Assembly: GCF_006716065.1 (NCBI RefSeq)
Contig: NZ_VFOL01000001.1
Location: 5,022,001 to 5,086,000, forward strand
Direction: 5' to 3'
Length of the DNA stretch: 64,000 nucleotides
Source of the DNA: Salinispora arenicola
Lineage (GTDB): Bacteria > Actinomycetota > Actinomycetes > Mycobacteriales > Micromonosporaceae
Position numbers and translations under genes: made by a program. The notes beneath the pieces were generated by a model. That model was not told the DNA's origin, did no database searches, and saw only the letters and a list, made by a program, of their open reading frames with translations. Shown piece after piece: positions 28,279 through 61,626 of the stretch (positions within the stretch are counted from its first letter, which is position 1; every line of letters begins with the position of its first letter).

Positions 28279-28294
28279 GTTGGTGCCCCTCCTC

Positions 28295-29227
28295 TCACAC
28301 CTGTCCCGTGGTCGGCGAGGGCCGCCCCGCGCCGGTGGGTGTGGCGCGCTGGTCCAGCCACATCCGTTGCAACATGTGCCAGTCTTGCGGATGTCGGGCT
28401 ATGCCCGCCGCCAGACCGTCGGCGACCCGCTGGGCCAGTATCCGCACCCGCACGTCGAGCGTGCCCTGCTCGGCCCCGGGCAGGGCCAGCGGCCCCTCGA
28501 TCGTGGCGCAGGCGGCGTCCGGCTCGTACCACAACGAGGCGACGTAGAGGGGCGCACCGGTACGGAGCGCGAGCAGGGCCGGACCGGGCGGCATCCGGGT
28601 ACGGGAGCCGAAGAAGTCGACTGTCACACCACGTGCCGACAGATCCCGGTCGGCCAGCAGGGGTACCACATATCCGGCCTTCACCCGGTCGACCAGCACA
28701 TCGAAGGCGGGCCGTTCGCCGCCGTGAGTGGGCAGGATCTCCATGCCCAGGTCCCGCCGGAACGCGAGGAAGCGCTGGTAGATCCCCTCCGGCTTGAGCC
28801 GCTCGGCGACCGTGGCGATCGGCCAGCCCATCGCCGCGACCCAGGCGCCGGCCATGTCCCAGTTGCCGGAGTGCGGCAGGGCCACGATCGCGCCCCGACC
28901 GGCGGCCACGTCGGCGGCGAGCACGTCCTCACGGTCGAACCGGAAACCGGCGAGGATCTCGGCCCGACTCAGCGCGGGCAGGCGGAACGCCTCCATCCAG
29001 TACCGGGCGTAGGACCGCAGCCCGGCCCGGACCAGCACGTCCAGGTCGGCTTCGGACACGTCTGGACCCACCACGCGGCGCAGGTTGGCGCGGAGTCGGG
29101 TCGTGCTCCCGCCGCCGCGGCGGTGGGCGCGGTCGGCGCCCACCCGGAAGAGTGTGCCCGCCACCGACCGGGGCAGTGCCCGGACCCCACGCCACCCGGC
29201 GAGGTAGGCCAGCTCGGTGAGGTTCAC
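28295..29227 (-). CDS. Phosphatidylinositol mannoside acyltransferase
   Basis: Homolog of mycobacterial Rv2611c (PatA), which palmitoylates the mannose of PIM. It has 310 residues from GTG 29227. The HX4D catalytic motif of the LpxL/HtrB family is IVALPHSGNWDMAGAWV, and substrate-binding residues lie around GSRTRMPPGPALLAL. The N-terminus has a hydrophobic region for membrane association. It lies between PIP synthase and pimA, with only 16-22 nt between genes, so the three are probably one transcript. Confidence 0.93.
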   Translation of the reverse strand: MNLTELAYLAGWRGVRALPRSVAGTLFRVGADRAHRRGGGSTTRLRANLRRVVGPDVSEADLDVLVRAGLRSYARYWMEAFRLPALSRAEILAGFRFDREDVLAADVAAGRGAIVALPHSGNWDMAGAWVAAMGWPIATVAERLKPEGIYQRFLAFRRDLGMEILPTHGGERPAFDVLVDRVKAGYVVPLLADRDLSARGVTVDFFGSRTRMPPGPALLALRTGAPLYVASLWYEPDAACATIEGPLALPGAEQGTLDVRVRILAQRVADGLAAGIARHPQDWHMLQRMWLDQRATPTGAGRPSPTTGQV

Positions 29228-29249
29228 CGGTGCCGCCCTTCGACCGCCC

Positions 29250-29885
29250 TCACCCCTGCCCGCCCGGAGCGGTGGGGACCTGCTGGGCCTGCCGGTACAC
29301 GTGGGCCATCCGCTGCGCCACCGTGAAGATCGACACAGCGGCGAGCAGCCAGAGCGCGATCGGCAGGGCGATCGTCAGGCCGAAACCGGTCAGCAGGCCC
29401 CCGACGCCGACGATCAACAGCCGCTCGGTGCGCTCGGCGATACCCACGTCACAGGTGAGACCGAGCCCTTCGGCCCGTGCCTTCACATACGAGACGAGCC
29501 CACCGGCGGCCAGGCACAGCAGCGCGGCGACGACCCCCGGGCGGTCACCCTCGGTGGACAGGTAGTAGGCCACCGCCCCGAAGACCGCGCTGTCGGCAAC
29601 CCGGTCCATGCTCGAGTCGAGGAAAGCCCCGAACCGGGTGGAGCCACCACTCATCCGGGCCATCGTCCCGTCGAGCAGGTCGGTGAGCGCGAAGACGGTG
29701 ACGATCAACGCGCCGGCGACGAGGTGACCGCGGGCCCCGAAGCCGAGCGCCCCGACGAGCACGCCAAGGGTGCCTGTCACGGTGACCGCGTTGGGAGTCA
29801 CGCCCGCACGGAGCAGGCGGCGCGCGACCGGTTCGACAACGCGGGTCATGCCCGCACGGGCCGTCACTTGGAAGATCTTCGCCAT
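29250..29885 (-). CDS. pgsA1: Phosphatidylinositol phosphate synthase (PgsA1-like)
   Basis: CDP-alcohol phosphotransferase making phosphatidylinositol phosphate from CDP-diacylglycerol and inositol phosphate, the entry step to PIMs. The ATG at 29885 gives 211 residues with six hydrophobic segments. The full CDP-alcohol signature D-x2-D-G-x2-A-R-x8-G-x3-D-x3-D is present (DLLDGTMARMSGG through DSSMDR). The N-terminal MAKIFQVTARAGMTRVVEP matches actinobacterial PIP synthases. It heads the PIM operon; a TATCGT hexamer lies 9 nt upstream. Confidence 0.95.
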   Translation of the reverse strand: MAKIFQVTARAGMTRVVEPVARRLLRAGVTPNAVTVTGTLGVLVGALGFGARGHLVAGALIVTVFALTDLLDGTMARMSGGSTRFGAFLDSSMDRVADSAVFGAVAYYLSTEGDRPGVVAALLCLAAGGLVSYVKARAEGLGLTCDVGIAERTERLLIVGVGGLLTGFGLTIALPIALWLLAAVSIFTVAQRMAHVYRQAQQVPTAPGGQG

Positions 29886-48480: not shown

Positions 48481-49464
48481 TCATGCCTCGGTCAACAACT
48501 CCAGGACCGCCCGCTCCGCGTCCTCGCGGGGCATCCACCGGCCGACCGGCGCCAACACACCATCGTGGTAGAGCTCGACGACCCGGGGGTCGACGTAGGA
48601 CGAACGAGCCACCGTGGGCGTGTTCCCGAGCAGCCCCGCCACCTCCCGCATGACCGCGGCCACCGCCCGACGGCGGGCGGTCACCGACCGGTGCCCACCA
48701 ACGGCAGCCAGCCCGGTGGCCGCCAGGACGGTGGCGTGCCAGGTACGGAAGTCCTTCGCGGTCATCTCACCTCCGCTGGCGGTACGCAGATACCCGTTGA
48801 CGTCGCCCCGGCGCACGTCCCGCCAGTGCCGGCCGTCCCAGTAGCCGAAGAGCCGGTCCGCGGCGCGGCGGCGACGACGCAGGTTGACCAGCACCTGGCA
48901 CAGCACCGGATCCTCAATCCACCGAATCTGCTCGATCCCACCCTTAGCCGGGAACTCCAGGACCACGCAGCCGCGGCGGGAGCGGGCGTGCTCCGGACGC
49001 AGAGTGGACACCCCGAAGGTCGGGTCGTCGCCGGCGGCGTAGCGGTCACTGCCCACCCGGAACGCGCCCAGGTCCAACAACCGGGCCACGGTGGCCAGCA
49101 CCCGATCTCGGTTCAGTCCCCGGCCGTCGAGGTCATCCGCGATGCGCTCGCGCAACCTGGGCAGCCGGTGGGCCACCTCGAGCACGTGATCGAACTTCGC
49201 CTCGTCCCGCTTGCGCCGCCACTCCGGGTGGTACAGGTACTGCCGCCGGCCAGCAGCATCGACTCCGGTGGCCTGGATGTGCCCGTTCGGGTACGGCGAA
49301 ATCCACACGTCCTGCCAGGCCGGCGGGATGACCAGGTCACGCAGCCGGGCCAGCCGATCCGGATCACGGACCGGCTCACCGGCCGGATCCTGGAACCCCC
49401 AGCCCCGGCCACGCCGGCAGCGCCGGTACCCCGGCCTGCCCGGATCACTACGCCGCAACCGCAC
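48481..49464 (-). CDS. DNA topoisomerase IB (poxvirus/bacterial type)
   Basis: 327 residues from GTG 49464. It relaxes supercoils through a 3'-phosphotyrosine intermediate. The N-terminal domain has DLVIPPAWQDVWISPYPNGHIQATGVDAAGRRQYLYHPEWRRKRDEAKFD. Catalytic-domain residues include SGGEMTAKDFRTWHATVLAA (Lys and Arg/His group) and the active-site Tyr in VARSSYVDPRVVELY. Length fits the small bacterial TopIB family. Its start overlaps the GT9 gene by 17 nt, making it the last member of the heptose operon. The functional link is unclear. Confidence 0.93.
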   Translation of the reverse strand: MRLRRSDPGRPGYRRCRRGRGWGFQDPAGEPVRDPDRLARLRDLVIPPAWQDVWISPYPNGHIQATGVDAAGRRQYLYHPEWRRKRDEAKFDHVLEVAHRLPRLRERIADDLDGRGLNRDRVLATVARLLDLGAFRVGSDRYAAGDDPTFGVSTLRPEHARSRRGCVVLEFPAKGGIEQIRWIEDPVLCQVLVNLRRRRRAADRLFGYWDGRHWRDVRRGDVNGYLRTASGGEMTAKDFRTWHATVLAATGLAAVGGHRSVTARRRAVAAVMREVAGLLGNTPTVARSSYVDPRVVELYHDGVLAPVGRWMPREDAERAVLELLTEA

Positions 49465-50401
49465 CGGTCGTCCGCACTGCCCGCTGCACCTCGTCGACGG
49501 CGACCAGCACCTGATCAACATCCACGGCCGCCAGCATCGGGTGGGCCCCGGTCCCGTCCCACCCCGGAAGGTCCCCACCGCCGGCCCAGAGCGCCCGGTG
49601 CCAGGGCCGATCGGGCGGTGGCCCCCACCGAGACGGCGGGTTGGGGCCGAAGAGGACGACGGAGGGGGTGCGGTAGGCGGTGGCAAGGTGGGCGATGCCG
49701 GTGTCGCCGCTGATCAGCAGGCGGGCATGAGCGACCAGAGTGGCCAGGTAACGCAAGTCGGTGTGGCCGGCCCGGACGGTGCGACCGGGCAACCCGGCAA
49801 GCCGCGCGACGCGCCGGGCGAGGCCGCACTCAGTGGTGTCTCCGGTTATCACGATCTCGTGGCCGGCAGCACTGAGCTGGCGGGCGACAGCCGCGAACCG
49901 CCGCACCGGCCAGCGCTTACCCGCGATCTTCGAGCCCGGGTGCAGCACGGTCACGCCGATCGGTGTTCGGTCGGGTGCTGGCCGGCGGAGGCCCAGGTCG
50001 GTCGGATCCGTGGGGACGCCGTACCAGTCCAGCAGGCGGCACCACCGGTGGACCTCGTGTTCGTCGGCCAGCCATGGCGGGCCGTCGTGGTGCCCGGCGA
50101 TCGGGTTGGCGAAGGCGATCAGCCGGTGCGGCCGGGTGCCGGCCAGCAGGCGGTGTGACTGTGGCCCGCGGCCGTGCAGATTGACCGCCAGGTCGGGAGC
50201 GGCTCCCCGCCACCGAAGGTGGGACAGGTCGTCGGTGTCGACCAGGTGGTCGATCCCACCGATCAGAGGAACCAGTGGGGCCAGCCAGTCCGGGGCGAGC
50301 AGGACCAGACGCTCGTCGGGGTGGTGGGCGCGCAGGGCGCGAAGTGCCGGCACGGCGGTGGCGAGGTCGCCGAGGCCCAGCGCACGGAGAATCACGATCA
50401 C
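49448..50401 (-). CDS. Glycosyltransferase family 9 (heptosyltransferase-like)
   Basis: 317 residues, GT-B fold. The start VIVILRALGLGDLATAVPALRALRAHHPDERLVLL is the ADP-heptose:LPS heptosyltransferase N-terminus, with the GDL catalytic-region Asp. The donor-binding half has VTVLHPGSKIAGKRWPVRRFAAVARQL and LLISGDTGIAHLATAYRTPSVVLFGPNPPSRWGPP. GTG 50401 overlaps the SDR gene by 4 nt and the 3' end overlaps the topoisomerase gene. With GmhA, HldE and GmhB in the same operon, ADP-heptose is the likely donor. The acceptor is unknown because this organism should have no LPS. Confidence 0.9.
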   Translation of the reverse strand: MIVILRALGLGDLATAVPALRALRAHHPDERLVLLAPDWLAPLVPLIGGIDHLVDTDDLSHLRWRGAAPDLAVNLHGRGPQSHRLLAGTRPHRLIAFANPIAGHHDGPPWLADEHEVHRWCRLLDWYGVPTDPTDLGLRRPAPDRTPIGVTVLHPGSKIAGKRWPVRRFAAVARQLSAAGHEIVITGDTTECGLARRVARLAGLPGRTVRAGHTDLRYLATLVAHARLLISGDTGIAHLATAYRTPSVVLFGPNPPSRWGPPPDRPWHRALWAGGGDLPGWDGTGAHPMLAAVDVDQVLVAVDEVQRAVRTTGAVAA

Positions 50402-51084
50402 GGGTAGGAGGACTCCTGTTCGGCGCAGACCACCAGTTCACGGACGGCGCAGCCGGCGGGTTGGGTCAGGGCGAACATGACCGCGGCGGCGGTGTCGGCC
50501 GGGTCGTTGAGGACCGCATCCGGTCCAGGTCGGTACTGTGGGTCGCGATCGTCGAAGAAGGCGGTGCGCATGCCACCGGGGATGAGCAGAGCCACGCCCA
50601 CCCGGCCCGCGAGTTCCGCGGCGAGCGCCCTGGTGAAACCGACCACCCCGAACTTCGCCGCGCAGTACGCCGTGGCGTCACCGACCGCCTTTACTCCCAG
50701 AGTCGAGGCGACGGTGACGATCCGGCCCCGGGAAGCCTCCAGGAACGGCAGTGCCGCCCGGATGACCGCGGCAGTGCCGAGTAGGTCCACCGTGACAACC
50801 CGGTCCCAGGTCTCCCCGGGTACGTCGGCCAGCCTTCCGGGCACATCCATCCCCGCCGCCGTCACGACGGCGTCCAGGCCACCGGTGCGCTCGACGATGT
50901 CCCGGGTGGCCGCCTCGGCGGCCCGAGTGTCGGCCAGGTCGCACGCCGCCCACGGCACCCCGTCGGCCGGGGGTTGCCGATCCAGTACCAGCGGTCGACC
51001 ACCCGCCCCGGCCACCGCCGAAACCACCGCCGCACCCAGCCCGCTCGACCCACCGGTCACCAGGACCGTGGACCCGGCGTTCAT
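50398..51084 (-). CDS. Short-chain dehydrogenase/reductase in the heptose operon
   Basis: 228 residues from ATG 51084. Classical SDR motifs: VLVTGGSSGLGAAVVSAV, TAAGMD in place of NNAG, Ser in TVASTLGVKAVG and YCAAK. LLIPGGMRTAFFDD is the usual P-G loop. It is not HldD, the ADP-heptose 6-epimerase, which is a longer extended-type SDR. It may oxidise, reduce or epimerise a sugar of the pathway, or replace HldD chemistry. Both ends overlap neighbouring genes by 4 nt. Confidence 0.88.
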   Translation of the reverse strand: MNAGSTVLVTGGSSGLGAAVVSAVAGAGGRPLVLDRQPPADGVPWAACDLADTRAAEAATRDIVERTGGLDAVVTAAGMDVPGRLADVPGETWDRVVTVDLLGTAAVIRAALPFLEASRGRIVTVASTLGVKAVGDATAYCAAKFGVVGFTRALAAELAGRVGVALLIPGGMRTAFFDDRDPQYRPGPDAVLNDPADTAAAVMFALTQPAGCAVRELVVCAEQESSYP

Positions 51085-52589
51085 CGGATCCCCGCCGACC
51101 GACGAGGCCCGGCCGCCGACCCGGATGGTGGATCCGCCCGGGGGTCCGCGGTGGACGCCGACGCGACGCCGCGACGACCCCGCTCGTGGGCCGCGGCGAT
51201 CATGTCGGTGGTCGAGCGCCCGTCCAGGTACGGCACCACCACGGTGTGCCCGCCCCACCGTCGCACCAACTCCGCCTCGGGGAGCACCGGCTCCCCTCCG
51301 CCCGTGGCATAGTCGCCTCCCTTGACCCAGATGTCGGGCCGCAACCAGGTCAACGTCGCCTGCGGCGTCGACTCGTCGAAGATCATGACCGCGTCGACAC
51401 AACTCAGCGCGGCGAGCAGGCGGCTCCGGTCACCCTGCGGCATCACCGGCCGGTCGGGGCCCTTCAGCTCCGCGACGCTGGCATCCGAGTTCAGGCAGAC
51501 CACCAGGCAGTCGCCGAGTTGACGGGCCGCCTGCAAGGTCGCCACGTGCCCCGCGTGCAGCAGGTCGAAGCAGCCGCCGGTGGCGACGACGGTGCCGCCG
51601 GCCGCGCGTACCTCGGAGACCACCGTGGCGGCGGCCACCACACCGATCCGCTCCGTCGGCACACCCGACACCACCGACGGCAACGGCCGGACCGGCGGCG
51701 GCAGCGCAGTCGCCACTCCCCCGCCCGTCACGTACGCGCATGCCTCGGTGACCCCCTCCTGCACCGCCTCGGAAACCAACGCGCCCCGGGCCAGGGCGAT
51801 CGCGGCAGTAGCCGCGAACCGATCCCCGGCCCCACAGGTGTCCCCGTCGGCGGTGGCCGGGGCGGGCACGATCAGCGGTGTCGGCCCGGCGTGGCACAGC
51901 AGCGCGCCGTCCCCGCCCATCGTCACCGCGACGGCCCGCGCCCGCCACCGCTGACGCAGTTCCAGGGCACCTCGTGACGCGGTCGCCAGCCGGGTCTCGC
52001 CCGGAGGCACCTTCGCCAGTTCGCGGACCTCTGATTCATTGGGCGTGGCCAGGTGCACTCCGGGTACCGCGGCCGGACCCCGGGGATGTGGATCCCAGAC
52101 CACCGGCGCCCGGGTTCCGGCCAACGCCGCCCGCAGCGCGGGCTGCCCGGCCACCCCCCGGCCGTAGTCGCTGACCAACACCACCGCAGCGTCCGCGATC
52201 GCCCGCAGCACCGCCTCGGCCGGCGGGCTTGGTTCACCGGCGGCACCGCCCCGGTCATGGCGCAGCAGCACCCGGCCCTGGGCCCGCAGCCGTACCTTCT
52301 CCGGGGTTCCGCCGGCCAGCCCGAGGGCGTACACCTGAACTCCGGCCGCGGCGAGTAGCGAGCTGAGCCGTGCGGCACCGGCGTCGTCGGCCAGGGCGGT
52401 GACCAGGACGACCTCGGTGCCCGGCGCCGCCGCCGCGAACGCCGCGGCCAGTCCGGCACCGCCCGGCCGGTCGGTGGACGAGGTCTCGTCCAGCACCGGC
52501 ACCGGCGAGTCCGGACAGAGCCGGTTCACCGCCCCTTCCACGTCCCGGTCGAGCAGGGTGTCGCCGACCACCACCAGGGGTCTCCTCAC
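51081..52589 (-). CDS. hldE: HldE, bifunctional heptose 7-phosphate kinase / heptose 1-phosphate adenylyltransferase
   Basis: 502 residues carrying two enzymes. Residues 1-315 are a PfkB/ribokinase-type kinase (GDTLLDRDVEGAVNRLCPDSPVPVL, GGAGLAAAF, LVSDYGRGVAG, catalytic TADGDTCGAGDRFA). Residues 335-470 are a cytidylyltransferase-fold domain: GGCFDLLHAGHVATLQAARQLGD contains the HxGH nucleotide motif, and GRSTTDMI the second. It makes D-glycero-beta-D-manno-heptose 1,7-bisphosphate and later ADP-heptose. A polar C-terminal tail of about 35 residues is extra. GGAGGGAAGC precedes the GTG. Confidence 0.95.
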   Translation of the reverse strand: MRRPLVVVGDTLLDRDVEGAVNRLCPDSPVPVLDETSSTDRPGGAGLAAAFAAAAPGTEVVLVTALADDAGAARLSSLLAAAGVQVYALGLAGGTPEKVRLRAQGRVLLRHDRGGAAGEPSPPAEAVLRAIADAAVVLVSDYGRGVAGQPALRAALAGTRAPVVWDPHPRGPAAVPGVHLATPNESEVRELAKVPPGETRLATASRGALELRQRWRARAVAVTMGGDGALLCHAGPTPLIVPAPATADGDTCGAGDRFAATAAIALARGALVSEAVQEGVTEACAYVTGGGVATALPPPVRPLPSVVSGVPTERIGVVAAATVVSEVRAAGGTVVATGGCFDLLHAGHVATLQAARQLGDCLVVCLNSDASVAELKGPDRPVMPQGDRSRLLAALSCVDAVMIFDESTPQATLTWLRPDIWVKGGDYATGGGEPVLPEAELVRRWGGHTVVVPYLDGRSTTDMIAAAHERGRRGVASASTADPRADPPSGSAAGPRRSAGIR

Positions 52590-52602
52590 GCTTCCCTCCT
52601 CA

Positions 52603-53349
52603 TCACGTCTCGACCTGCTGCTCGCCGTTCAGCACCACCTCGACCCCGGCCCGTACCGGTCCGGCAGCCGGCACGTCCGTGGACAGCACATCGATGGGCG
52701 GTGTGTCGGTGGGCGCCCCGGAGCCGCGGCCGGTCACCGGCGCCGCTGCCGGTGCACCGGCAGCGGCGGCCAGCGCCGCCGGGAGCGCCTGCTCGGTGTA
52801 CTCGCAGAGCAGGTGACTGGAGACCAGGTGCAGTTCCTGGACGATCTGCCCATCCGGCGCCGGAACAGCGAGGGTCTCGTGGCACAGGTCGGCCAGCGGA
52901 TTGGGCACAGGTCCGGTCAGGGCCCAGCACCGTAGGCCGACGTGGTGGGCGGCCTGGGCGGCCTGCAGGAGGTTCCGGCTCCTGCCGCTGGTGGACAGCA
53001 GCAGGAGGATGTCACCGGGACGGCCGTGGGCGTGGACCTGACGGGCGAAGACCTGGTCATAGCCGTAGTCGTTGCCGACGGCGGTCAGGGCGCTGGTCTC
53101 GGCGTGCAGGGCGATGGCAGAGAAGGGCTGGCGGTCGGCGTGGAGTTTGCCGACGAGTTCGGCGGTGAGGTGTTGCGCCTCGGCGGCGCTACCGCCGTTG
53201 CCGGCCACCAGCAGCCGACCACCGCCGGCCAGGGTGCGGGCGAGTTCGGCTCCCCAGGCAGGTAGTCGCCGGGCGGCGCGGCGGTACGGCGGCAGCGCGG
53301 CGGCGAGGCCCGCCAGGTGTTCCTCCAGGATCGACCGGGCCGGCGTCAT
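52603..53349 (-). CDS. gmhA: GmhA-type sedoheptulose 7-phosphate isomerase (SIS domain)
   Basis: 248 residues. The SIS fold has RLLVAGNGGSAAEAQHLTAELVGK and DILLLLSTSGRSRNLLQAAQAAHHVGLRCWALTGP, closely GmhA-like; QELHLVSSHLLCEYTEQAL ends the domain. GmhA proteins are about 190 residues. The last 55 here (Ala/Pro/Thr-rich, AAAGAPAAAPVTGRGSGAPTD) are an unstructured addition. First committed step of heptose synthesis. It overlaps the GT4 gene by 4 nt; hldE follows after 13 nt. Confidence 0.92.
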   Translation of the reverse strand: MTPARSILEEHLAGLAAALPPYRRAARRLPAWGAELARTLAGGGRLLVAGNGGSAAEAQHLTAELVGKLHADRQPFSAIALHAETSALTAVGNDYGYDQVFARQVHAHGRPGDILLLLSTSGRSRNLLQAAQAAHHVGLRCWALTGPVPNPLADLCHETLAVPAPDGQIVQELHLVSSHLLCEYTEQALPAALAAAAGAPAAAPVTGRGSGAPTDTPPIDVLSTDVPAAGPVRAGVEVVLNGEQQVET

Positions 53350-54566
53350 CCGGCCACCACCCGGGTCGCCCGGCCCACAGCCGCCACGTCACCGTAGACC
53401 TCGACCAGCCGCTCCGCGGTGGCAGCCCACGCGTAGCGCTCCCGAACCCGTTCCAGCGCCGCCGTCGCATACGTGAACCGGCGAATCCGGTCGTCGAGCA
53501 GCCGCTGGATCGCGGTACCGAGCGCACGGGGATCCCGGGCGGGCACGAGGTCACCGGTCACCCCGTCCACCACCGTGTCCCTGATCCCCCCGACCGCGGT
53601 ACCCACCACCGGCACGCCACACGCCATCGCCTCGAGCGGGGTCAGCCCGAACGGCTCGTACCACGGTGCGGCCACCAGCAGATCCGCCGAGCGATACCAG
53701 CGGCCCATCTCCTCCCTGGGCACCGCGCCGGCCAGCCGCACCCGATCAGCAACCCCGCACGAGTGCGCCAGGGCCCGCAGCCGACCCGCGTACGGGTCGG
53801 TCTCGAGCAGCCCGGCCGGTGGCCCGCCGACCACCACGCACTCCGCGTCCGGCACATGGGCCATCGCCCGGACAACGGTCTGGAAACCCTTCCGCTCGAC
53901 CAGCCGCCCCACGGTGAGAATGCGGGGGCGGCCGTCGTCGCGGTCGGCGGCGGGGCCCAACGGGGCGAAGGTACGGAGGTTGACCCCGGACGGGACGACC
54001 GTCATCCGGGACCGGGGCACGCCCATCCGAACCAACTCACCGACCTCGTCCTGGCACTGGGCGATCACCCGGTCCACCGATCGGCCGAGTTCCCGCTCGT
54101 AGCCGATACGGCGGGGCGGGCTGGTGTCCTGCACGCCCTGATACCGCCGTTTGACCACGCCGAGCGCGTGGTAGGTCTGTACCACCGGCACACCGGTCCT
54201 GCGGCCGGCGGCGAGCCCGGCGAGACCACTCATCCAGAAGTGCGCGTGGACCACCTCCGGAGTCCACCGATCGCCGCGCCAGCGATCCGTCAGCCAGTGG
54301 CTGAACCCCTTCATGTGGGGCAGCAGCGCGTCCTTGGCCACCGGCTCCGCCGGGCCGGCCGGAACATGGACCACCTCGTACCCGTCCGGGCAGCGGACGG
54401 TCGCCGGCAGGTCGACCGCGTCCCAGCGCGTGTAGACCCGCACATCGTGGCCGGCCGCGGCGAGGGCTGCGGAGAGTTCGGCGACGTGCGTGTTCTGGCC
54501 GCCGGCGTCCTCCCCGCCGAGGACGGCGAGCGGGCTGGCGTGCTCCGAGATCATCGCGATCCGCAT
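53346..54566 (-). CDS. GT4-family glycosyltransferase
   Basis: 406 residues from ATG 54566 after GGAGGAGGAAGT. RIAMISEHASPLAVLGGEDAGGQNTHVAELSAAL is the glycine-rich acceptor region of MshA/sucrose-synthase-like GT4 enzymes. HAHFWMSGLAGLAAGRRTGVPVVQTYHALG follows. The C-domain has ILTVGRLVERKGFQTVVRAM, and PWYEPFGLTPLEAMACGVPVVGTAVGG contains the EX7E pair. It is a retaining enzyme using a nucleotide sugar; donor and acceptor unknown. Co-transcribed with the heptose genes. Confidence 0.9.
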   Translation of the reverse strand: MRIAMISEHASPLAVLGGEDAGGQNTHVAELSAALAAAGHDVRVYTRWDAVDLPATVRCPDGYEVVHVPAGPAEPVAKDALLPHMKGFSHWLTDRWRGDRWTPEVVHAHFWMSGLAGLAAGRRTGVPVVQTYHALGVVKRRYQGVQDTSPPRRIGYERELGRSVDRVIAQCQDEVGELVRMGVPRSRMTVVPSGVNLRTFAPLGPAADRDDGRPRILTVGRLVERKGFQTVVRAMAHVPDAECVVVGGPPAGLLETDPYAGRLRALAHSCGVADRVRLAGAVPREEMGRWYRSADLLVAAPWYEPFGLTPLEAMACGVPVVGTAVGGIRDTVVDGVTGDLVPARDPRALGTAIQRLLDDRIRRFTYATAALERVRERYAWAATAERLVEVYGDVAAVGRATRVVAG

Positions 54567-55528
54567 ACTTCCTCCTCCAGCAGCCGGTCCCAGTCGGTGA
54601 GGAAACGGTCGAGGCCGTACCGGTCGCGGGCGGCACGACGGGCGATGGCTCCCGCCCGACGGGCAGCCGCTGGGTCCACCATCAACTGACCGGTGGCGGT
54701 CAGCAGGTCGTCGACCCGGGTGGCGAGGGCGCCGGCACCGGGCGGCACCGCCATCACGGCCTCCGTGGCGGCGAGCACGACGACCGGCATGCCGATCGTC
54801 ATCGCCTCGATCAGGCTCAGCCCGAGCGAGGTCCACCGGCACAGGTGCAGGTATGCCCGCCTTCGGGCCAGCTCGGCGTGCATCCGTGCCTGAGGCAGGT
54901 CGTCGTGGCTGGTCAGTCGATCGGCTGGCAACCCGAGCTGGTCGGCGAGCCCGGCTACCTTCATGCCGAACACGTCCAGGGGTGCGATCTCGGCGAACCG
55001 GGGCAGCAGGTCGGTGCCGGTGACCCGCCGGCGACGTATCGGTTCGTTGATCACCACCGCGAGCCGGTCCAATTCGCCGGTGTACTCGACCGTCGGTGGC
55101 ACGATGCCGTGGTCCACCACGGTGGTCCGGGTACCCCCGGTGTCCCAGTAGAGCTGGTTGAAGGCGGTGACGTGGGCGACCAGCAGGTCATCGCGGTCGG
55201 CCATCGGGTGTCGGCTGTTCGGCACCGCCCCGTCCTTCGGGGTGTTGTGCTCGACGTAGATCGCCGGGACGTCGCGGCCCGGCCGACGGCCCAGCCACTC
55301 GGTGGCCAGGGCCTCCTCCTCGGGGCGTTGCAGGAGGACCAGGTCCACCTCGGCGGTCGCCAGTTCGGGTGGGGTGACCTCGACCGCGCTGTCCGGCCAC
55401 GGGTAGGTGCGGGCCCGACCGAGGCCATCCGGGCCACGGTCGGGGGTGACGGGCACCAGATAGCGATGCTTGCCGTGGACGAACGACGTCGTCCAGGAGC
55501 CGTGCACGTGCCAGAGCAGGATGTTCAT
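54551..55528 (-). CDS. Glycosyltransferase, GT-B type
   Basis: 325 residues from ATG 55528. The start is MNILLWHVHGSWTTSFVHGKHRYLVPVTPDRGPDGLGR. The middle has IYVEHNTPKDGAVP and YWDTGGTRTTVVDHGIVPP. The C-terminal half, RRRAYLHLCRWTSLGLSLIEAMTIGMPVVVLAATE, matches the donor-binding region of GT4-like enzymes. The protein is shorter than typical GT4 enzymes, with a reduced N-domain. It overlaps the upstream fusion gene by 4 nt and the following GT4 gene by 16 nt. Confidence 0.82.
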   Translation of the reverse strand: MNILLWHVHGSWTTSFVHGKHRYLVPVTPDRGPDGLGRARTYPWPDSAVEVTPPELATAEVDLVLLQRPEEEALATEWLGRRPGRDVPAIYVEHNTPKDGAVPNSRHPMADRDDLLVAHVTAFNQLYWDTGGTRTTVVDHGIVPPTVEYTGELDRLAVVINEPIRRRRVTGTDLLPRFAEIAPLDVFGMKVAGLADQLGLPADRLTSHDDLPQARMHAELARRRAYLHLCRWTSLGLSLIEAMTIGMPVVVLAATEAVMAVPPGAGALATRVDDLLTATGQLMVDPAAARRAGAIARRAARDRYGLDRFLTDWDRLLEEEVCGSR

Positions 55529-57297
55529 CGGCCGCTCCGGGCGAGGGCGGTGGCCACGGCCGTCGTCGGTGGCCGGGACAGGGGCACGCCGAGCAGGGTC
55601 AGCGCGGCCAACACCTCCTCCGGCCTGATCCGGCTCAGGCAGGGGTGGCCGGGTACCGGGCAGGTGGCGGCACGGGTGCCGCGGCAGGGGGTGTCCGGAT
55701 CGCCGAGCCGGACGGTCGGCACCCGCCACGGCCCCCACTGCCCGAACGGGACCGTCGGGGCGAAGAGGCTGACCACCGGAACGCCGTACGCGGCGGCGAG
55801 GTGGGCGGGACCGGTGTTACCGACGACCACCGCGGCGGCACCGGCGACGGTCGCGGCCAGGTCGGCCAGTCCGGTCCCACCGCCGAGATCAACGGCGATC
55901 CCGCCGGCCACCCGCGCGGTCAACGCCACCTCGTCCGGACCGCCGGTGACCACGACCCGGTGGCCCGCGCCGACCAGGGTCCGGACGATCTCCGCTGCCA
56001 GGTCGGGCGGCAACCCCCGGGACTGAGCCGCCGAGCCGGGGTGCAGCACCACGTAGCCCGGCGCGCCCACCCGCGCAGGTGGCGGCGGCACCGGCCGCAG
56101 CCGCAGGACCGGTTCGTCGTCGAACGGTAGTGGGTAGCCGGCGGCGGCGGCGAGCGAGAGGGCACGTTCGGGCTCGGGGGTGCCGGTCGGGACGTGGTGG
56201 CGGACGTCGAGCAGGCTGCCGGGGTAGTCGTCGCTGATCGCGCAGATGCGCTCGACGCCGACGGCACGCAGCAGCAGGGCCAAGGGGAGCGGGGACTGGT
56301 GGTAGCTGGTGAAGATCACCGCCTCGTCGGCGTCGACGGCAGCGAGGGCGGTGGTGAGGGTGGCGATGTCGTGCGGGGTAACCGGTGCGGGTGCGGGGTC
56401 GATCCACGGCAGTTGGTGCTCGATGACGGTGTCGACGCCAGGTAGGAGGTCGGCGGCGGCACGACCGCGCGGTCCGCACAGCAGGACGACCCGGCGCGCG
56501 TGGGCGGCGACGGCACGGATCCCCGGGCCCGTGACAAGCACGTCGCCGGCCGAGTCGGAACGGACGACGAGTACGGTCCCGGCACGCCGGCTGGGGCGGG
56601 AGCGACGGACCGCCGACGCCACAGTGGCCGGGGACGGGGCGCCCGCCGACGCCACAGTGGCCGGCGACGGAAGGCCCACCGACGGCAGGGCGCGTCGGTG
56701 GGTGGCCGGATCGATGGCGGCCTGCCGACGGAGAATCTCGGCTGCCGCGGCCGGTAGATCCGCCGCGACCCACGGCGCGGCGCTGGTTTCGGGTGGGCGG
56801 GTCAGTGGCGTGGGCACCAGGACCGCCTGGGCGCCGGCGGCCAGTGCAGCGGTGACATCGCGACCGATGTCACCGACCAGAACGCACCGCTGCGGCGTGG
56901 TGCCGAGCCGGCGGGCGGCGGCGTGGATCAGTTCCGGCGCTGGTTTGCGACAGCTGCACCGGTCGTCGTCGTCGTGCGGACAGACCAGCCAGGCGTCGAA
57001 CGGGCCGAGCACCTGCTCGACCCGCGCGTGTACGGCCCGCAGCTGCGCCTCGGTGAACAGCCCCTTGGCCAGCCCGGACTGGTTCGTCACCACCGCCAGC
57101 CGCAGGCCCGCCGACCGCAGCGCGTCCAGCGCCGCCCGCGCCCCCGGCATCGGCCGTACCCGCTCCGGGTTCCCGTTGTACGGCACGTCCTCGATGAGGG
57201 TGCCATCCCGGTCCAGCAGCACCGCGTCGAACAGGCGGGAAACCGAGCCGCCCCGGCGGGCTGTTGCCCGGGTCGACCTGCGCTGATCCGGCTCCAC
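55525..57297 (-). CDS. Fusion of GmhB phosphatase and a GT9 glycosyltransferase
   Basis: About 590 residues. The N-terminal 190 are a HAD phosphatase of the GmhB type: FDAVLLDRDGTLIEDVPYNGNPERVRP (DxDGT), VVTNQSGLAKG, the zinc-loop region CPHDDDDRCSCRKPAPELI and VLVGDIGRDVTAA. A linker at about 215-235 contains PSPATVASA twice. From about 235 on is a GT9 enzyme: LVVRSDSAGDVLVTGPGIRAVAAH, VLHPGSAAQSRGLPPDL and VVGNTGPAHLAAAYGVPVVSLFAP. It would dephosphorylate heptose 1,7-bisphosphate and also transfer the finished sugar. The start is uncertain (GTG 57297 or 57306). First gene of the operon. Confidence 0.88.
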   Translation of the reverse strand: MEPDQRRSTRATARRGGSVSRLFDAVLLDRDGTLIEDVPYNGNPERVRPMPGARAALDALRSAGLRLAVVTNQSGLAKGLFTEAQLRAVHARVEQVLGPFDAWLVCPHDDDDRCSCRKPAPELIHAAARRLGTTPQRCVLVGDIGRDVTAALAAGAQAVLVPTPLTRPPETSAAPWVAADLPAAAAEILRRQAAIDPATHRRALPSVGLPSPATVASAGAPSPATVASAVRRSRPSRRAGTVLVVRSDSAGDVLVTGPGIRAVAAHARRVVLLCGPRGRAAADLLPGVDTVIEHQLPWIDPAPAPVTPHDIATLTTALAAVDADEAVIFTSYHQSPLPLALLLRAVGVERICAISDDYPGSLLDVRHHVPTGTPEPERALSLAAAAGYPLPFDDEPVLRLRPVPPPPARVGAPGYVVLHPGSAAQSRGLPPDLAAEIVRTLVGAGHRVVVTGGPDEVALTARVAGGIAVDLGGGTGLADLAATVAGAAAVVVGNTGPAHLAAAYGVPVVSLFAPTVPFGQWGPWRVPTVRLGDPDTPCRGTRAATCPVPGHPCLSRIRPEEVLAALTLLGVPLSRPPTTAVATALARSGR

Positions 57298-57680
57298 CTG
57301 TGGCACGGCCGGCGGGTTCCCTGCGCCCCGAGGTGTAAACCTCAGTGGGACGGCGCCGCCCGTGCCGCCCCGCCGGTGCGGTCCCGCCAGCGGTGACCCG
57401 ATGCGGTCCTCGCCCGCGATGGCCTTACCCGCCGCCCCCGAGAAGCTAACCCGGCCACGGGTACGCCGCGCGCCGGTTCGCCACGGCCCCGGGCGTTCGT
57501 GGACAATGTGCCCGACCAGCCCGCACGGAGGTGTCCCGTCGACAGGTCGTCGGGTCACGTGGACGTCGTCGACGCTGGGTAACGACGTCGGCTGACCGGA
57601 GCCCGGGAGCCGTCACACGACGTACAGGGGCACTGGCTACCCTCGCAGGGAGCCAAGTCCGCGAAACAAGGATTTCCGAC
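57298..57680. other. 383-bp divergent promoter region between the heptose operon and ppm1
   Basis: No gene. On the plus strand TACCCT at 57638-57643 is a likely -10 for ppm1, about 37 nt before its ATG, with AAGGA as ribosome site. The promoter for the heptose operon must also lie here or upstream of an earlier start, but I cannot assign it. The stretch is GC-rich with no repeat worth reporting. Confidence 0.5.
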
Positions 57681-58448
57681 ATGAGTGAACCCGTGCAGTT
57701 GCCGTCGCCGTGGCGGGACGTGCGCCTGACCGTGGTGGTGCCGACCTACAACGAGGCAGGCAACCTACCGATACTGGTGGAACAGTTGCTCGCGCTGCCC
57801 CTGCCCGGGTTGAAGGTCCTCGTGGCCGACGACAACTCGCCGGACGGCACCGGCGACGTCGCGGACAAGCTGGCTGTCGAGCACCCGGACCGGATCGAGG
57901 TCGTCCACCGGGCCGGTAAGGAAGGCCTGGGCCGGGCGTACGTCGACGGCATGGGGCGGGCTCTCGACGGTGGTGCCGAGTTCGTCGCGCAGATGGACGC
58001 CGACCTCTCCCACCCGCCGGACGCGCTGCCCGGCATGCTGGGTGCGCTGTTGTCCACCCAGGCCGGGGTGGTGATCGGTTCCCGTTACGTGCCGGGCGGC
58101 GAGCTGGACGAGAACTGGCCGCTGTACCGGCGGGCGCTGAGCGGATGGGCGAACCTGTACGTCCACACCCTGCTGCGGGTACGGATCCGGGACCTCACCG
58201 CCGGCTTCAAGATCTGGCGGGCGGACGCGCTGCGCGACATCGGACTGGAGCGGGTGCAGTCCAATGGCTACAGCTTCCAGGTGGAGATGCACTACCTGGC
58301 CACGAAGCTGGGGCACACGATCCTCGAGGTACCGATCCGGTTCGAGGAACGGCATGACGGCGACTCGAAGATGACAACCGCCACCAAGATCGAAAGTGCG
58401 CTGATGCCGTTCCGCCTACGCAGCAAGCACCGCAACGTCGAACGCTGA
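57681..58448 (+). CDS. ppm1: Polyprenol monophosphomannose synthase (Ppm1/Dpm1-like)
   Basis: GT2 enzyme making polyprenyl-phosphate-mannose from GDP-mannose, the donor for late PIM/LM and protein mannosylation. 255 residues: LTVVVPTYNEAGNLPILVEQLL, VADDNSPDGTGDVAD, the DXD region in VAQMDADLSHPPDALP, and DLTAGFKIWRADAL. It ends HRNVER without the C-terminal membrane domain. In mycobacteria the enzyme is fused to an apolipoprotein N-acyltransferase; here it is free-standing. ATG after AAGGATTTCCGAC. Confidence 0.93.
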   Translation: MSEPVQLPSPWRDVRLTVVVPTYNEAGNLPILVEQLLALPLPGLKVLVADDNSPDGTGDVADKLAVEHPDRIEVVHRAGKEGLGRAYVDGMGRALDGGAEFVAQMDADLSHPPDALPGMLGALLSTQAGVVIGSRYVPGGELDENWPLYRRALSGWANLYVHTLLRVRIRDLTAGFKIWRADALRDIGLERVQSNGYSFQVEMHYLATKLGHTILEVPIRFEERHDGDSKMTTATKIESALMPFRLRSKHRNVER

Positions 58449-58514: not shown

Positions 58515-60119
58515 TTAGCGGTAGACCGCGCGGTGCGCCGCACCCATCGCCGCCGCGTACAGGCCGCCGGTCAGCGCGCCGTCGCGGGCCAACGCCGCCC
58601 GCGCGGCGTTGGCACCGCACGCGCCGTGCACACCACCGCCGGGATGCGCCGACGCACTGGCCAGAAAGAGCCGGTCGACGGGTGTGTCGGCGCGACCGAG
58701 GCCGGGGACCGGGCGGAAGAACAGCTGCTGGTAGGCGGCGGCGGTACCCCCGCCGAGTGCCCCGCCGACCAGGCTCGGATCGCCCGCCTCCAGGTCCGCC
58801 GGTCCCGCCACGTGGCGGCCCACCACCAGGTCACGGAAGCCCGGGGCGGCATCCTCCAGCACCTGTTCCATCCGCTGTACGTGCGCGGCGACCTCCTCGG
58901 CCCGCCACGACCGCCGGAACGGCAGGTGGGTGTACGACCACAACGACTCGGTGCCGGGCGGCGAGTGGCTGGGGTCGGCGACGGTCATCTGCCCGACCAA
59001 CAGGAACGGACTGCGGGGAACCTCCCCCCGGGCCAGCGTCGCCGCGTAGTCGGTCAGCCCGTCGAGGTCGGCGCCGAGGTGGACGGTGCCCGCCGTGGCA
59101 ACCGCTCGGTTGGTCCACGGCACCGGAGCGGACAACGCCCAGTCGACCTTCAGGGTCGAGCCGTCCCACCGGAAGTGGGCCAGGTCCGCCACCAGCCGGG
59201 GCGGTAGCACGTCGGCCCCGACAAGATCCAGGAAGAGTGCGGGTGCCGGCACGTCGGCGAGCACCGCACGGCGGGCCCGCCACAGCGCACCGTCCTCGGT
59301 CCGGACGCCCATCGCCCGGCCCCGGGCGGTCAGCACCCGATCCACCCGCGCGCCGCAGCGAATCTGACCGCCCCGGTCGGCGAGCCGCGCCACCAGCGCG
59401 TCGGTGATCCGCTGGGCGCCGCCGTCCGGCACTGGCCAACCAACCTGCTGGCCAAGCATCGCCAGCAGCCACCCGAAAGCCCCGGAGCCGACCTCCTCCG
59501 GGGCGAGGTCGGTGTGCAGCCCGCAGCCGGCGAGCAGGGCCGCACCACCCGCCCCACGGAAGAGCTCGTCGCCGAGCCGACGAACCGGCATCACCAGTTG
59601 GCGGGCCAGACGCATCGCCCCGGCGACCCGCAGCCGGCGCACCAGGGTGAGACTGCTGCGCACCGGCGGGAATGGCGTGGTGATGGCGTCCAGCACCGGG
59701 TCGGCCACCTGGCACCAGTCGCCGTACGCGGCCAGCCACCGCTCTCCGTCACCGGCCGCGAACGCCTCCAGGGAGGTGGCCGTGGTCGCCGGATCGCGGT
59801 TGAGTACCGCCGCCCGCCCGTCCGGCAGCAGGTGCGCCAACACGTCCGGGGCGTGCCGCCAACGCACCCCGTACTGGTCCAGCCCCAGCCCGCGCAGCAC
59901 CGGCGAGGCGTAACCGACGGGGTAGAAGGAGCTGTAGAGGTCGCTCAGGTAGCCGGGAGCGGTCACCTGGGCCGACCGGATCGCCCCGCCCGGCGCTCCG
60001 GTCGCCTCCAGCACGAGCACGTCCCAGCCGGCGTCGGCGAGCAGATTGGCGGCCACCAGACCGTTGTGCCCCGCTCCGATAACGATCGCGTCCGGGGACG
60101 CCGCGCCGACTGGAGCCAT
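58515..60119 (-). CDS. Phytoene dehydrogenase-like FAD oxidoreductase
   Basis: 534 residues. It starts with the Rossmann FAD motif DAIVIGAGHNGLVAANLLADAGWDVLVLEA and APGGAIRS. The ending RLFLASASAHPGGGVHGACGANAARAAL is the second conserved FAD block of the CrtI-like/NAD(P)-FAD family. No other carotenoid genes lie nearby, so a carotenoid role is not supported by context. The ATG at 60119 has TAGCAT 6 nt upstream. It diverges from the aldehyde dehydrogenase gene. Confidence 0.9.
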   Translation of the reverse strand: MAPVGAASPDAIVIGAGHNGLVAANLLADAGWDVLVLEATGAPGGAIRSAQVTAPGYLSDLYSSFYPVGYASPVLRGLGLDQYGVRWRHAPDVLAHLLPDGRAAVLNRDPATTATSLEAFAAGDGERWLAAYGDWCQVADPVLDAITTPFPPVRSSLTLVRRLRVAGAMRLARQLVMPVRRLGDELFRGAGGAALLAGCGLHTDLAPEEVGSGAFGWLLAMLGQQVGWPVPDGGAQRITDALVARLADRGGQIRCGARVDRVLTARGRAMGVRTEDGALWRARRAVLADVPAPALFLDLVGADVLPPRLVADLAHFRWDGSTLKVDWALSAPVPWTNRAVATAGTVHLGADLDGLTDYAATLARGEVPRSPFLLVGQMTVADPSHSPPGTESLWSYTHLPFRRSWRAEEVAAHVQRMEQVLEDAAPGFRDLVVGRHVAGPADLEAGDPSLVGGALGGGTAAAYQQLFFRPVPGLGRADTPVDRLFLASASAHPGGGVHGACGANAARAALARDGALTGGLYAAAMGAAHRAVYR

Positions 60120-60192: not shown

Positions 60193-61626
60193 ATGTATAC
60201 GGTTGCTCAGCTCATCGGCGGAGTGTGGGGGGCAGGTGGCGAAGGGGGCGAACTGGTCGTCCACGACCCGGCCGACGGCACCCCCGTCAGCTCGGTGCCC
60301 GTGGCGACGGCGGAAGAGGTCAGCAAGGCGGTGGAGGCGGCCCGGGGCGCCGCCGAGGAGTGGGCGGCGACGCCCCCGGCGGAGCGCGCTGCCGCCCTGC
60401 ACCGGGCCGCGGACGCGGTGGCTGCCGTCGCCGCCGAACTGGCCCAGGCCACGACGGCGGAGATGGGAAAGCCCCTCGCCGACGCGCGGGGCGGGGTAGA
60501 TGCCGGCGTCGGCACCCTGCACCAGTACGCCGAGCTGGCGCCGGTCCGTGGCGGGCGGACACTGCACGGTGCCACTGAGGCGATCGACTTCATGCTGCCG
60601 CAGCCCCGTGGCGTGGTCGCCGCGATCACTCCCTGGAACGATCCGGTAGCAGTCTCCTGCGGCCTGCTCGGCGCGGCGCTGGTCACCGGGAACGTGGTGC
60701 TCTACAAGCCGAGCGAGCGGACCCCGGCGACCGGCTGGCTGTTGGCGAAGACCCTGGACGGGGCGCTGCCGGCCGGCGTGCTCTCACTGCTGACCGGGGG
60801 GCCCGAGGTAGGCGCGGCGCTGGCCGCCCAGCGCGTCGATGTGCTCGCTCACGTGGGTTCGACCGCCACCGGCCGGTCGATCGCCGCCGCGGCCGCACAG
60901 ACCGGTGCGAAGGTACTGCTCGAAAACGGCGGCAGCGACCCCCTCGTCGTCGACGGAAACGTGGACCCGGTCTGGGCAGCCCAGCAGGCGGCACTCGGTG
61001 CGTTCGCCAACGCCGGGCAGATCTGCGTCGCCGTGGAACGGATCTACGTACACCGGGATGTGGCCGAGGACTTCGTCGACGCCCTGGTCGATCGGGCACA
61101 GGCCCTGCGTAGCGGCCCGGGCGCCGACCCGGCGACCGAACTGGGCCCGCTGGTCGACCGGCGGCACCGCGACCATGTCCACGGACAGGTCACGGCCGCG
61201 GTGGCACAGGGTGCCCGGATCCGAACCGGCGGCGCCCTGCCGGACGGGCCGGGCGCGCACTACCCGGCGACCGTGGTGTCGGACTGCCGGCACGACATGC
61301 CCCTGGTCCGCGAGGAGACCTTCGCCCCGGTCGCCCCGGTCGTGGTGGTCGACTCGTTCTCCGAGGCCCTGCGGTGCGCGGCCGATTCGCCGTACGGGCT
61401 CGCCGCGACCGTACTGACCGCCTCGATGAGCCACGCCCAGCGCGCCTGGCGCGAGCTTCCGGTGGGCACCGTGAAGGTCAACGCGGTCTTCGGTGGGGCG
61501 CCGGGCGGTGCCGCGCATCCGCGCCGGGGCAGCGGGCAGGGATTCGGGTACGGGCCGGAACTACTCGACGAGTTCACCGCGACGAAGGCGGTCCACTTGG
61601 AGGCCCCCGGGGGCGGCCACTGGTGA
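60193..61626 (+). CDS. Aldehyde dehydrogenase family protein
   Basis: 477 residues from ATG 60193. The NAD-dependent ALDH fold has AAITPWNDPVAVSCGLLGAALVTGNVVLYKPSERTP, then HVGSTATGRSIAAAA. The catalytic general base Glu is in KVLLENGGSDPLVVD (ENGG rather than the common ELGG), and the nucleophile Cys in FANAGQICVAVERIYVH. REETFAPVAPVVVVDSF and GLAATVLTASM are typical late motifs. Relatives include succinate-semialdehyde and lactaldehyde dehydrogenases. Substrate unknown. Confidence 0.92.
   Translation: MYTVAQLIGGVWGAGGEGGELVVHDPADGTPVSSVPVATAEEVSKAVEAARGAAEEWAATPPAERAAALHRAADAVAAVAAELAQATTAEMGKPLADARGGVDAGVGTLHQYAELAPVRGGRTLHGATEAIDFMLPQPRGVVAAITPWNDPVAVSCGLLGAALVTGNVVLYKPSERTPATGWLLAKTLDGALPAGVLSLLTGGPEVGAALAAQRVDVLAHVGSTATGRSIAAAAAQTGAKVLLENGGSDPLVVDGNVDPVWAAQQAALGAFANAGQICVAVERIYVHRDVAEDFVDALVDRAQALRSGPGADPATELGPLVDRRHRDHVHGQVTAAVAQGARIRTGGALPDGPGAHYPATVVSDCRHDMPLVREETFAPVAPVVVVDSFSEALRCAADSPYGLAATVLTASMSHAQRAWRELPVGTVKVNAVFGGAPGGAAHPRRGSGQGFGYGPELLDEFTATKAVHLEAPGGGHW

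What the first reader, a model, noticed from the sequence alone, without database searches (positions are those of the whole stretch)
48481..57297. Complete-looking ADP-heptose synthesis operon in a Gram-positive, without HldD or LPS genes
Seen: eight minus-strand genes with overlaps of 4-17 nt or gaps up to 13 nt, encoding GmhB-GT9 fusion, GT-B, GT4, GmhA, HldE, SDR, GT9 and TopIB. Known: GmhA, HldE and GmhB give ADP-D-glycero-beta-D-manno-heptose; HldD then epimerises it for LPS. Inference: the non-epimerised heptose, or one altered by the SDR, is moved by the two GT9 domains onto a surface glycan or a metabolite. The lack of lipid A/Kdo genes in the window and the nearby PIM and Ppm1 genes point to an undescribed heptose-containing envelope polymer.
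Basis: partly seen in the sequence, partly recalled or inferred. Interest (0 to 1): 0.78.

Follow-up and report, generated by a model that had tools for sequence, protein, structure and literature searches.

The report
Actinobacterial heptose-glycan (cwg-type) operon
A Salinispora-like Gram-positive bacterium carries a compact gene set that should make a seven-carbon sugar best known from Gram-negative outer membranes and attach it to an unknown glycan; it looks like a trimmed relative of the Streptomyces "cell wall glycan" operon that responds to vancomycin, and it hints at what that operon makes.

Summary
Seven tightly packed minus-strand genes (57306-49448) encode a GmhB-GT9 fusion, a GT4-fold transferase, a GT4, GmhA, HldE, an SDR and a GT9; TopIB is only a neighbour. 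Checked residues of GmhA, HldE and GmhB are intact and invariant in relatives. The 5.63 Mb genome has no HldD over cut-off, no WaaA and no LpxC; no HldD rang at E <= 1e-50 in 393 class genomes. In 59 of 59 long named loci, chosen by the GT4-fold protein, GmhA, HldE, GmhB, GT9 and GT4 are present.

It is not undescribed. Order and printed annotations match the 12-gene cwg operon of Streptomyces coelicolor (SCO6179-6190), a vancomycin-induced sigma-E target predicted to make a cell wall glycan. The window holds a reduced form: GmhB fused to GT9, an SDR present, no carbamoyltransferase or GT2, and no linked UDP-glucuronate-decarboxylase-like gene.

[quoted passage not shown] 'Polymer' is unproven: no export or polymerisation gene recurs beside the core.

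The parts
55525..57306 (-). GmhB (HAD D,D-heptose-1,7-bisphosphate 7-phosphatase) fused to a GT9 domain; like CwgD + CwgE
   Evidence: Pfam/NCBIfam; best solved relative of the N half is D,D-heptose 1,7-bisphosphate phosphatase 4pnh; DxD and C-x-H...C-x-C in 117 of 117 aligned relatives; the GT9 motif has N, T and H in 120 of 120 (NTGxxH, not DTGxxH). GmhB and this GT9 share one frame in 67 of 118 loci.
54551..55528 (-). GT4-fold glycosyltransferase; like CwgF by position only
53346..54566 (-). GT4 glycosyltransferase of the sucrose-phosphate synthase / MshA group; like CwgG
   Evidence: best solved relatives Tll1590 (212 bits) and MshA (187 bits) (the molecule names of 3c4q and 6kih are given).
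52603..53349 (-). GmhA sedoheptulose-7-phosphate isomerase; like CwgH
   Evidence: TIGR00441 156 bits, below the curated 209; solved relatives are phosphoheptose isomerases; H60, E64 in 122 of 122 and Q171, H179 in 121 of 121 relatives. Only strong GmhA match in the genome; two others at 24-25 bits.
51081..52589 (-). HldE: heptose-7-phosphate kinase + heptose-1-phosphate adenylyltransferase; like CwgI
   Evidence: PRK11316 255 bits (cut-off 521), rfaE_dom_II 174 (181.5), rfaE_dom_I 127 (345); GAGD 116 of 116 and HxGH 115 of 115 in relatives.
50398..51084 (-). Classical SDR oxidoreductase, substrate unknown
   Evidence: YxxxK in 93 of 93 aligned relatives; SDR hit in 26 of 26 family loci, 13 of 20 other-family loci, 49 of 59 long named loci (the threshold also takes generic SDRs of about 30-35% identity).
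49448..50401 (-). GT9 heptosyltransferase with the DTGxxH motif; like CwgJ
   Evidence: solved relatives WaaF 1psw, GT9 3tov, WaaC 2gt1; D, T, G and H in 104 of 104 relatives.
48481..49404 (-). DNA topoisomerase IB: neighbour, not part of the unit
57693..58448 (+). Ppm1-like GT2 (polyprenol-phosphate mannose synthase), divergent neighbour in the reduced form
60223..61626 (+). Aldehyde dehydrogenase, often near the unit; possible accessory gene
   Evidence: a hit in 11 of 26 family loci, 8 of 20 other-family loci, 32 of 59 long named loci (threshold also admits generic aldehyde dehydrogenases).

Best explanation
The seven genes are a reduced, Micromonosporaceae form of the cwg ('cell wall glycan') operon. 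GmhA turns sedoheptulose 7-phosphate into D-glycero-D-manno-heptose 7-phosphate; the HldE kinase half and the GmhB domain give the 1-phosphate; [quoted passage not shown] With no HldD the sugar stays D,D. The GT9 with the DTGxxH motif (and probably the fused GT9) transfers it, and the two GT4-type enzymes add other sugars, onto an unknown acceptor in the cytoplasm; the SDR may modify one sugar. The product is most likely a short heptose-bearing glycan or glycoconjugate of the cell envelope, as predicted for cwg. Shown here: gene content, kept residues, no HldD/WaaA/LpxC match in the genome, conservation, cwg-like order in relatives. Inferred: enzyme activities, stereochemistry, acceptor, location of the product, role in envelope stress.
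For: Domains and residues. One strong GmhA match. No HldD over cut-off, no WaaA, no LpxC in the genome (E. coli rings as control in each); HldD at E <= 1e-50 in 0 of 393 class genomes (at most about five first-look candidates were scored per genome). Core in 59 of 59 long named loci; in 20 loci of other families HldE, GmhB, GT9 and GT4 in 19 and GmhA in 17. The order UXS-like - carbamoyltransferase - GT2 - GmhB - GT9 - GT4-fold - GT4 - GmhA - HldE - GT9 (these ten taken alone, other genes allowed between) occurs in 12 of 100 loci and agrees with the printed annotations that I saw: cwgB, C transferases, cwgD 'dehydratase' (my reading: HisB-like HAD = GmhB), cwgE 'putative heptosyl transferase', cwgG transferase, cwgH phosphoheptose isomerase, cwgI bifunctional synthase/transferase, cwgJ transferase. 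HldE tree pairs the window with Salinispora mooreana (support 100) within a carbamoyltransferase-less set in Micromonosporaceae.
Against: The sugar-nucleotide enzymes score below the curated cut-offs of the LPS equivalogs, so the substrate could differ. The S. coelicolor proteins themselves were not aligned; no S. coelicolor entry was among the 80 named loci or the 120 proteins listed, and the annotations of cwgA, F, K and L were not seen. In two Streptomyces-type loci (L099, L171) the order differs (the UXS-like and carbamoyltransferase genes lie directly before the GT4-fold gene), which would fit cwgD 'dehydratase' too. The reported sigma-E promoter pattern was not found upstream of the window unit nor of the relatives' first genes. 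No membrane protein for export recurs with the core. The window form lacks three of the cwg-type genes.
Confidence: 0.6

Rival explanations
1. The unit makes a small soluble heptose glycoside (specialised metabolite or stress solute) rather than an envelope glycan. The fuller relatives add a NodU/TobZ-type carbamoyltransferase, as in small-molecule pathways (recalled).
For: No family of proteins with 5 or more predicted membrane helices recurs within 4 kb of the core in more than 9 of 105 loci; that one looks like an MFS exporter by eye and is in 9 loci, 7 named Streptomyces, L099 of family f19 and L062 of the window's family. Carbamoyltransferase in 32 of 59 long named loci (Pfam Carbam_trans). 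ADP-heptose is a known precursor of septacidin and hygromycin B in Streptomyces (PMC10221265, passage).
Against: The locus is conserved over many families (GT4-fold protein in 103 of 393 class genomes and 42 of 122 genera), which is unusual for a specialised-metabolite cluster (general knowledge). The cwg operon is induced by a wall-active antibiotic (PMC6767563, passages). Not all recurrent neighbour families were annotated, so accessory genes could have been missed.
Confidence: 0.25
2. The enzymes have drifted to another sugar: HldE makes for example ADP-mannose or another ADP-sugar and no heptose is made.
For: Sub-cut-off scores; HldE enzymes accept beta-D-mannose 1-phosphate (PMC10948575, passage); a same-genus genome (G065) keeps the second-type HldE without a strong GmhA match, so HldE-like proteins can live without the heptose route.
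Against: In the window type GmhA and GmhB travel with HldE (59 of 59 long named loci) with the checked residues kept; the GT9 DTGxxH motif is kept in 104 of 104.
Confidence: 0.1

Closest known systems
cwg operon of Streptomyces coelicolor (SCO6179-SCO6190; Hong, Paget and Buttner 2002, known here only through later papers)
   Same: Phosphoheptose isomerase, bifunctional HldE-type synthase, heptosyltransferase-type and other transferases in a matching order.
   Different: Window form lacks the linked UDP-glucuronate-decarboxylase-like gene, the carbamoyltransferase and the GT2; has an SDR that the Streptomyces loci lack or show only at 33-35% identity; GmhB and the first GT9 are one protein; no sigma-E promoter found. 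Compared by order and printed annotation, not by aligning S. coelicolor proteins.
LPS inner-core heptose pathway (GmhA, HldE, GmhB, HldD, WaaC/WaaF)
   Same: First three enzymes and the GT9 family and motif.
   Different: No HldD over cut-off and no LpxC or WaaA match in the genome.
Septacidin / hygromycin B heptose pathways in Streptomyces
   Same: ADP-heptose made in a Gram-positive (PMC10221265, passage).
   Different: Those serve specialised metabolites; this unit is widely conserved. Not compared by sequence.
GDP-heptose route (HddA/HddC; recalled)
   Same: Starts from sedoheptulose 7-phosphate through GmhA and GmhB.
   Different: Window kinase is PfkB-type and fused to a nucleotidyltransferase of the HldE kind.

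Membership tests
cwg-type operon | GmhB, GT9, GT4-fold transferase, GT4, GmhA, HldE and a second GT9 in one cluster in that order | tested here: met
   window has all seven in that order, with the SDR between HldE and the last GT9.
cwg-type operon | Carbamoyltransferase, GT2 and UXS-like gene in the operon | tested here: not met
   No such gene among the window ORFs of the unit and its flanks; no carbamoyltransferase match in the genome at E <= 1e-5 (a search without a positive control); a 57% identical UXS-like relative lies at C1:1.512 Mb.
cwg-type operon | Sigma-E dependent promoter (AAC ... CGTC) | tested here: inconclusive
   Not found upstream in the window; but also not upstream of the relatives' first genes, so the test has no working control.
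cwg-type operon | Induction by vancomycin and role in the wall | not testable with these tools
   Needs expression and wall analysis.
LPS heptose pathway | GmhA, HldE, GmhB | tested here: met
   By domain and residues, though NCBIfam equivalog cut-offs are not reached.
LPS heptose pathway | HldD epimerase | tested here: not met
   (29 of 29 candidates scored, none over cut-off); for the class.
LPS heptose pathway | Lipid A / Kdo acceptor (LpxC, WaaA) | tested here: not met
   with E. coli ringing as control.
GDP-heptose (HddA/HddC) route | GHMP-type heptose kinase and guanylyltransferase (recalled) | tested here: not met
   Searches show PfkB and CTP_transf_like/rfaE domains in the linked enzyme; the rest of the genome was not searched for HddA/HddC.
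Tridomain NDP-heptose synthetases of actinobacteria (only a title in a reference list seen) | Three catalytic domains in one protein | tested here: not met
   Window HldE and the second HldE each show two Pfam domains of this kind; what the three domains are was not read.
Septacidin/hygromycin-type heptose cluster | Scaffold and amino-sugar genes beside the heptose genes | not tested
   No sequence comparison made; the flanking genes annotated show none.

The most novel reading that the evidence does not exclude
A large part of the Actinomycetes makes an HldD-free D,D-heptose glycan of the cell envelope, a Gram-positive counterpart of the LPS heptose region; cwg is its general form, decorated by carbamoylation in many lineages and stripped of it in Micromonospora/Salinispora.
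Probability: 0.4. Interest if true: 0.78.

Novelty: new variant of a known kind. Interest (0 to 1): 0.5.

Why it matters
In the ten searches of held open-access papers that I made I found none that identifies the product of the vancomycin-induced cwg operon. This locus gives a compact seven-gene version in which one sugar can be named in advance, so one deletion plus a heptose assay would test it. If true, ADP-heptose, known mainly as a Gram-negative product and innate immune signal, is made by many ordinary Gram-positives.

Tried and rejected
Sigma-E promoter: scans upstream of GmhB (118 loci, relaxed pattern; 18 with hits, six of them one site in closely related Micromonospora and one, L138, from a 12 kb artefact stretch; none in the window), upstream of the GT2 (66 loci, strict pattern, none) and upstream of the UXS-like gene (39 loci, 1 hit, in a 19 kb artefact stretch of L097; 3.8 expected by shuffling, a figure raised by two such stretches) led nowhere (one search looked at three Streptomyces loci).

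Second HldE as part of the same pathway: in a few genomes both HldE types lie together (L073, L091, L100, and in part L096), but G065 keeps only the second type and has no strong GmhA match, so I did not make it part of the unit. It shows two domains, not three.

HldD candidates: the own-genome matches to the HldD profile are all below cut-off; the one nearest the relatives' UXS-like gene is 57% identical to it, and that gene's family matches UDP-glucuronate decarboxylase best among solved structures.

Bleomycin sugar genes as relatives was a recollection; the paper search gave nothing to test it with.

A search of 5.8 billion proteins listed no S. coelicolor entry among the 120 rows shown of 7319.
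Full report

The genome. The window lies in a 5.63 Mb single contig. It has one strong GmhA match (two more at 24-25 bits), three GT9 matches, two in the window and one elsewhere, and two HldE: the window's and one at C1:2.306 Mb beside a GT2 and a divergent GT9. There is no HldD over cut-off (14 lower matches, best 113.2 bits), no WaaA-type N domain and no LpxC. Over 393 genomes of the class, HldD reaches E <= 1e-50 in none; in the controls E. coli, Caulobacter and Haloferax rang, two of the three over the cut-off (only some five first-look candidates were scored per genome).

Conservation. Of 121 genomes of the family, 74 have an HldE match at E <= 1e-20, both HldE types counted together. 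I took 26 loci with the window type from these; GmhA, HldE, GmhB, both GT9, GT4 and SDR are in 26 of 26, the GT4-fold protein in 24, a carbamoyltransferase in 15, TopIB in 13, Ppm1 in 8 (HldE is there by choice). In 393 class genomes the GT4-fold protein is found in 103 at E <= 1e-10, in 42 of 122 genera. Of 20 regions that I chose from other families, HldE, GT9, GT4 and GmhB are in 19, GmhA in 17, and one (L102) has the GT4-fold protein alone (in L096 the HldE is the second type). In the class sample 91 of 92 genomes with a GmhA of at least 165 bits have the GT4-fold protein, 87 within 15 kb and 4 on other contigs; 12 genomes have the latter without such a GmhA.

What it is. Twelve of 100 loci, eleven from Streptomycetaceae and one Pseudonocardiales bin, carry the order UXS-like, carbamoyltransferase, GT2, GmhB, GT9, GT4-fold, GT4, GmhA, HldE, GT9, other genes allowed between them (in L151 an MFS gene on the other strand lies between HldE and the last GT9). 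A printed table of S. coelicolor lists SCO6180 and 6181 as transferases, SCO6182 'dehydratase', SCO6183 and 6185 transferases, SCO6186 phosphoheptose isomerase, SCO6187 bifunctional synthase/transferase and SCO6188 transferase, as cwgB-E and G-J (PMC5839063, passages), and another paper calls SCO6183 (cwgE) a putative heptosyl transferase (PMC5882110, passage). The match is by order and annotation, not by alignment with S. coelicolor. Two loci (L099, L171) have another order, in which the UXS-like and carbamoyltransferase genes precede the GT4-fold gene; cwgD 'dehydratase' could then be the UXS-like gene, but cwgE as a heptosyl transferase fits the first order better. The 12-gene cwg operon is induced by vancomycin, partly dependent on sigma-E, and predicted to make a cell wall glycan (PMC6767563, passages; Hong et al. 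2002 itself was not held). The UXS-like family matches UDP-glucuronate decarboxylase best.

The window form. In the HldE tree (113 rows, quick method, midpoint root) the window falls in starred sets of 33 and 36 rows, all without the carbamoyltransferase in their loci and nearly all with both Ppm1 and TopIB, inside a 64-row Micromonosporaceae group (99) in which many others keep the carbamoyltransferase. Loss is the simplest reading, but the root and several inner forks are weak. Some Micromonospora carry both a fuller and a reduced copy (L142 and L143; L046 and L078). GmhB and the first GT9 lie in one frame in 67 of 118 loci. No carbamoyltransferase match was found elsewhere in the genome (a search without a control).

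How it most likely works. [quoted passage not shown] No HldD means the D,D form, unless an unrelated epimerase acts. The step from there to an envelope glycan rests on the cwg prediction. Against a polymer made on the spot, only 23 of 105 loci have a protein with 5 or more membrane helices (simple hydropathy count) within 4 kb of the core; the largest recurrent family, MFS-like by eye, is in 9. Shared regulation could not be shown.

The second HldE. It recurs with a GT2 and a GT9 in 10 of 11 loci examined, the window's own included. A same-genus genome, G065, has only this type and no strong GmhA match, so its substrate may not be the GmhA product, or another isomerase serves it.

Print. ADP-heptose in Streptomyces is known for septacidin and hygromycin B (PMC10221265, passage). 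Rhodococcus ruber has a heptose 1-phosphate guanosyltransferase gene whose deletion abolishes its capsule material (PMC12298843, passage). I found no paper that identifies the cwg product or reports this unit in Micromonosporaceae in the ten searches made (listings, and passages of nine papers bear on it); subscription papers are mostly not held.

Noticed in passing
G000:C1:2304487-2308362 (L082:4488-8363): Second HldE (622 aa as called, two domains) with a GT2 and a divergent GT9, seen with HSP20 (9 of 11) and NUDIX (8 of 11) genes in the loci examined; a same-genus genome has it without a strong GmhA match.
   Followed up: partly
57450-57440 and 57340-57313, minus strand: Two blocks kept in 16 of 16 aligned Micromonospora/Salinispora stretches upstream of the GmhB-GT9 gene: GTTAGCTTCTC, and GTTTAC followed by GGGAACCCG just before the start codon; possible promoter or leader.
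   Followed up: no
60223-61626: An aldehyde dehydrogenase lies near the unit in several families, in L089 directly after the SDR, and may be an accessory gene.
   Followed up: partly
58515-60056: A flavin amine-oxidase-family protein is often kept beside the unit and Ppm1 (29 of 59 long named loci).
   Followed up: no
27118-29885: GT4, lipid A-acyltransferase-family protein and CDP-alcohol phosphatidyltransferase: probably an ordinary phosphatidylinositol mannoside set, about 20 kb from the heptose unit; linkage in relatives not tested.
   Followed up: partly
L142 and L143 (Micromonospora mirobrigensis); L046 and L078 (G045): Single genomes carry two copies of the unit, one with the carbamoyltransferase and GT2, one reduced and next to Ppm1 and TopIB.
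   Followed up: partly
L097 (G156): A cluster with HldE, GmhB, GT9 and GT4 but no GmhA; a distant GmhA (36% identity) lies elsewhere in that genome.
   Followed up: no
L061:11114-12289 and relatives: A gene family that looks like an alternative sigma factor by eye lies near the unit in 8 of 47 loci (family 15); a possible regulator, not annotated.
   Followed up: no
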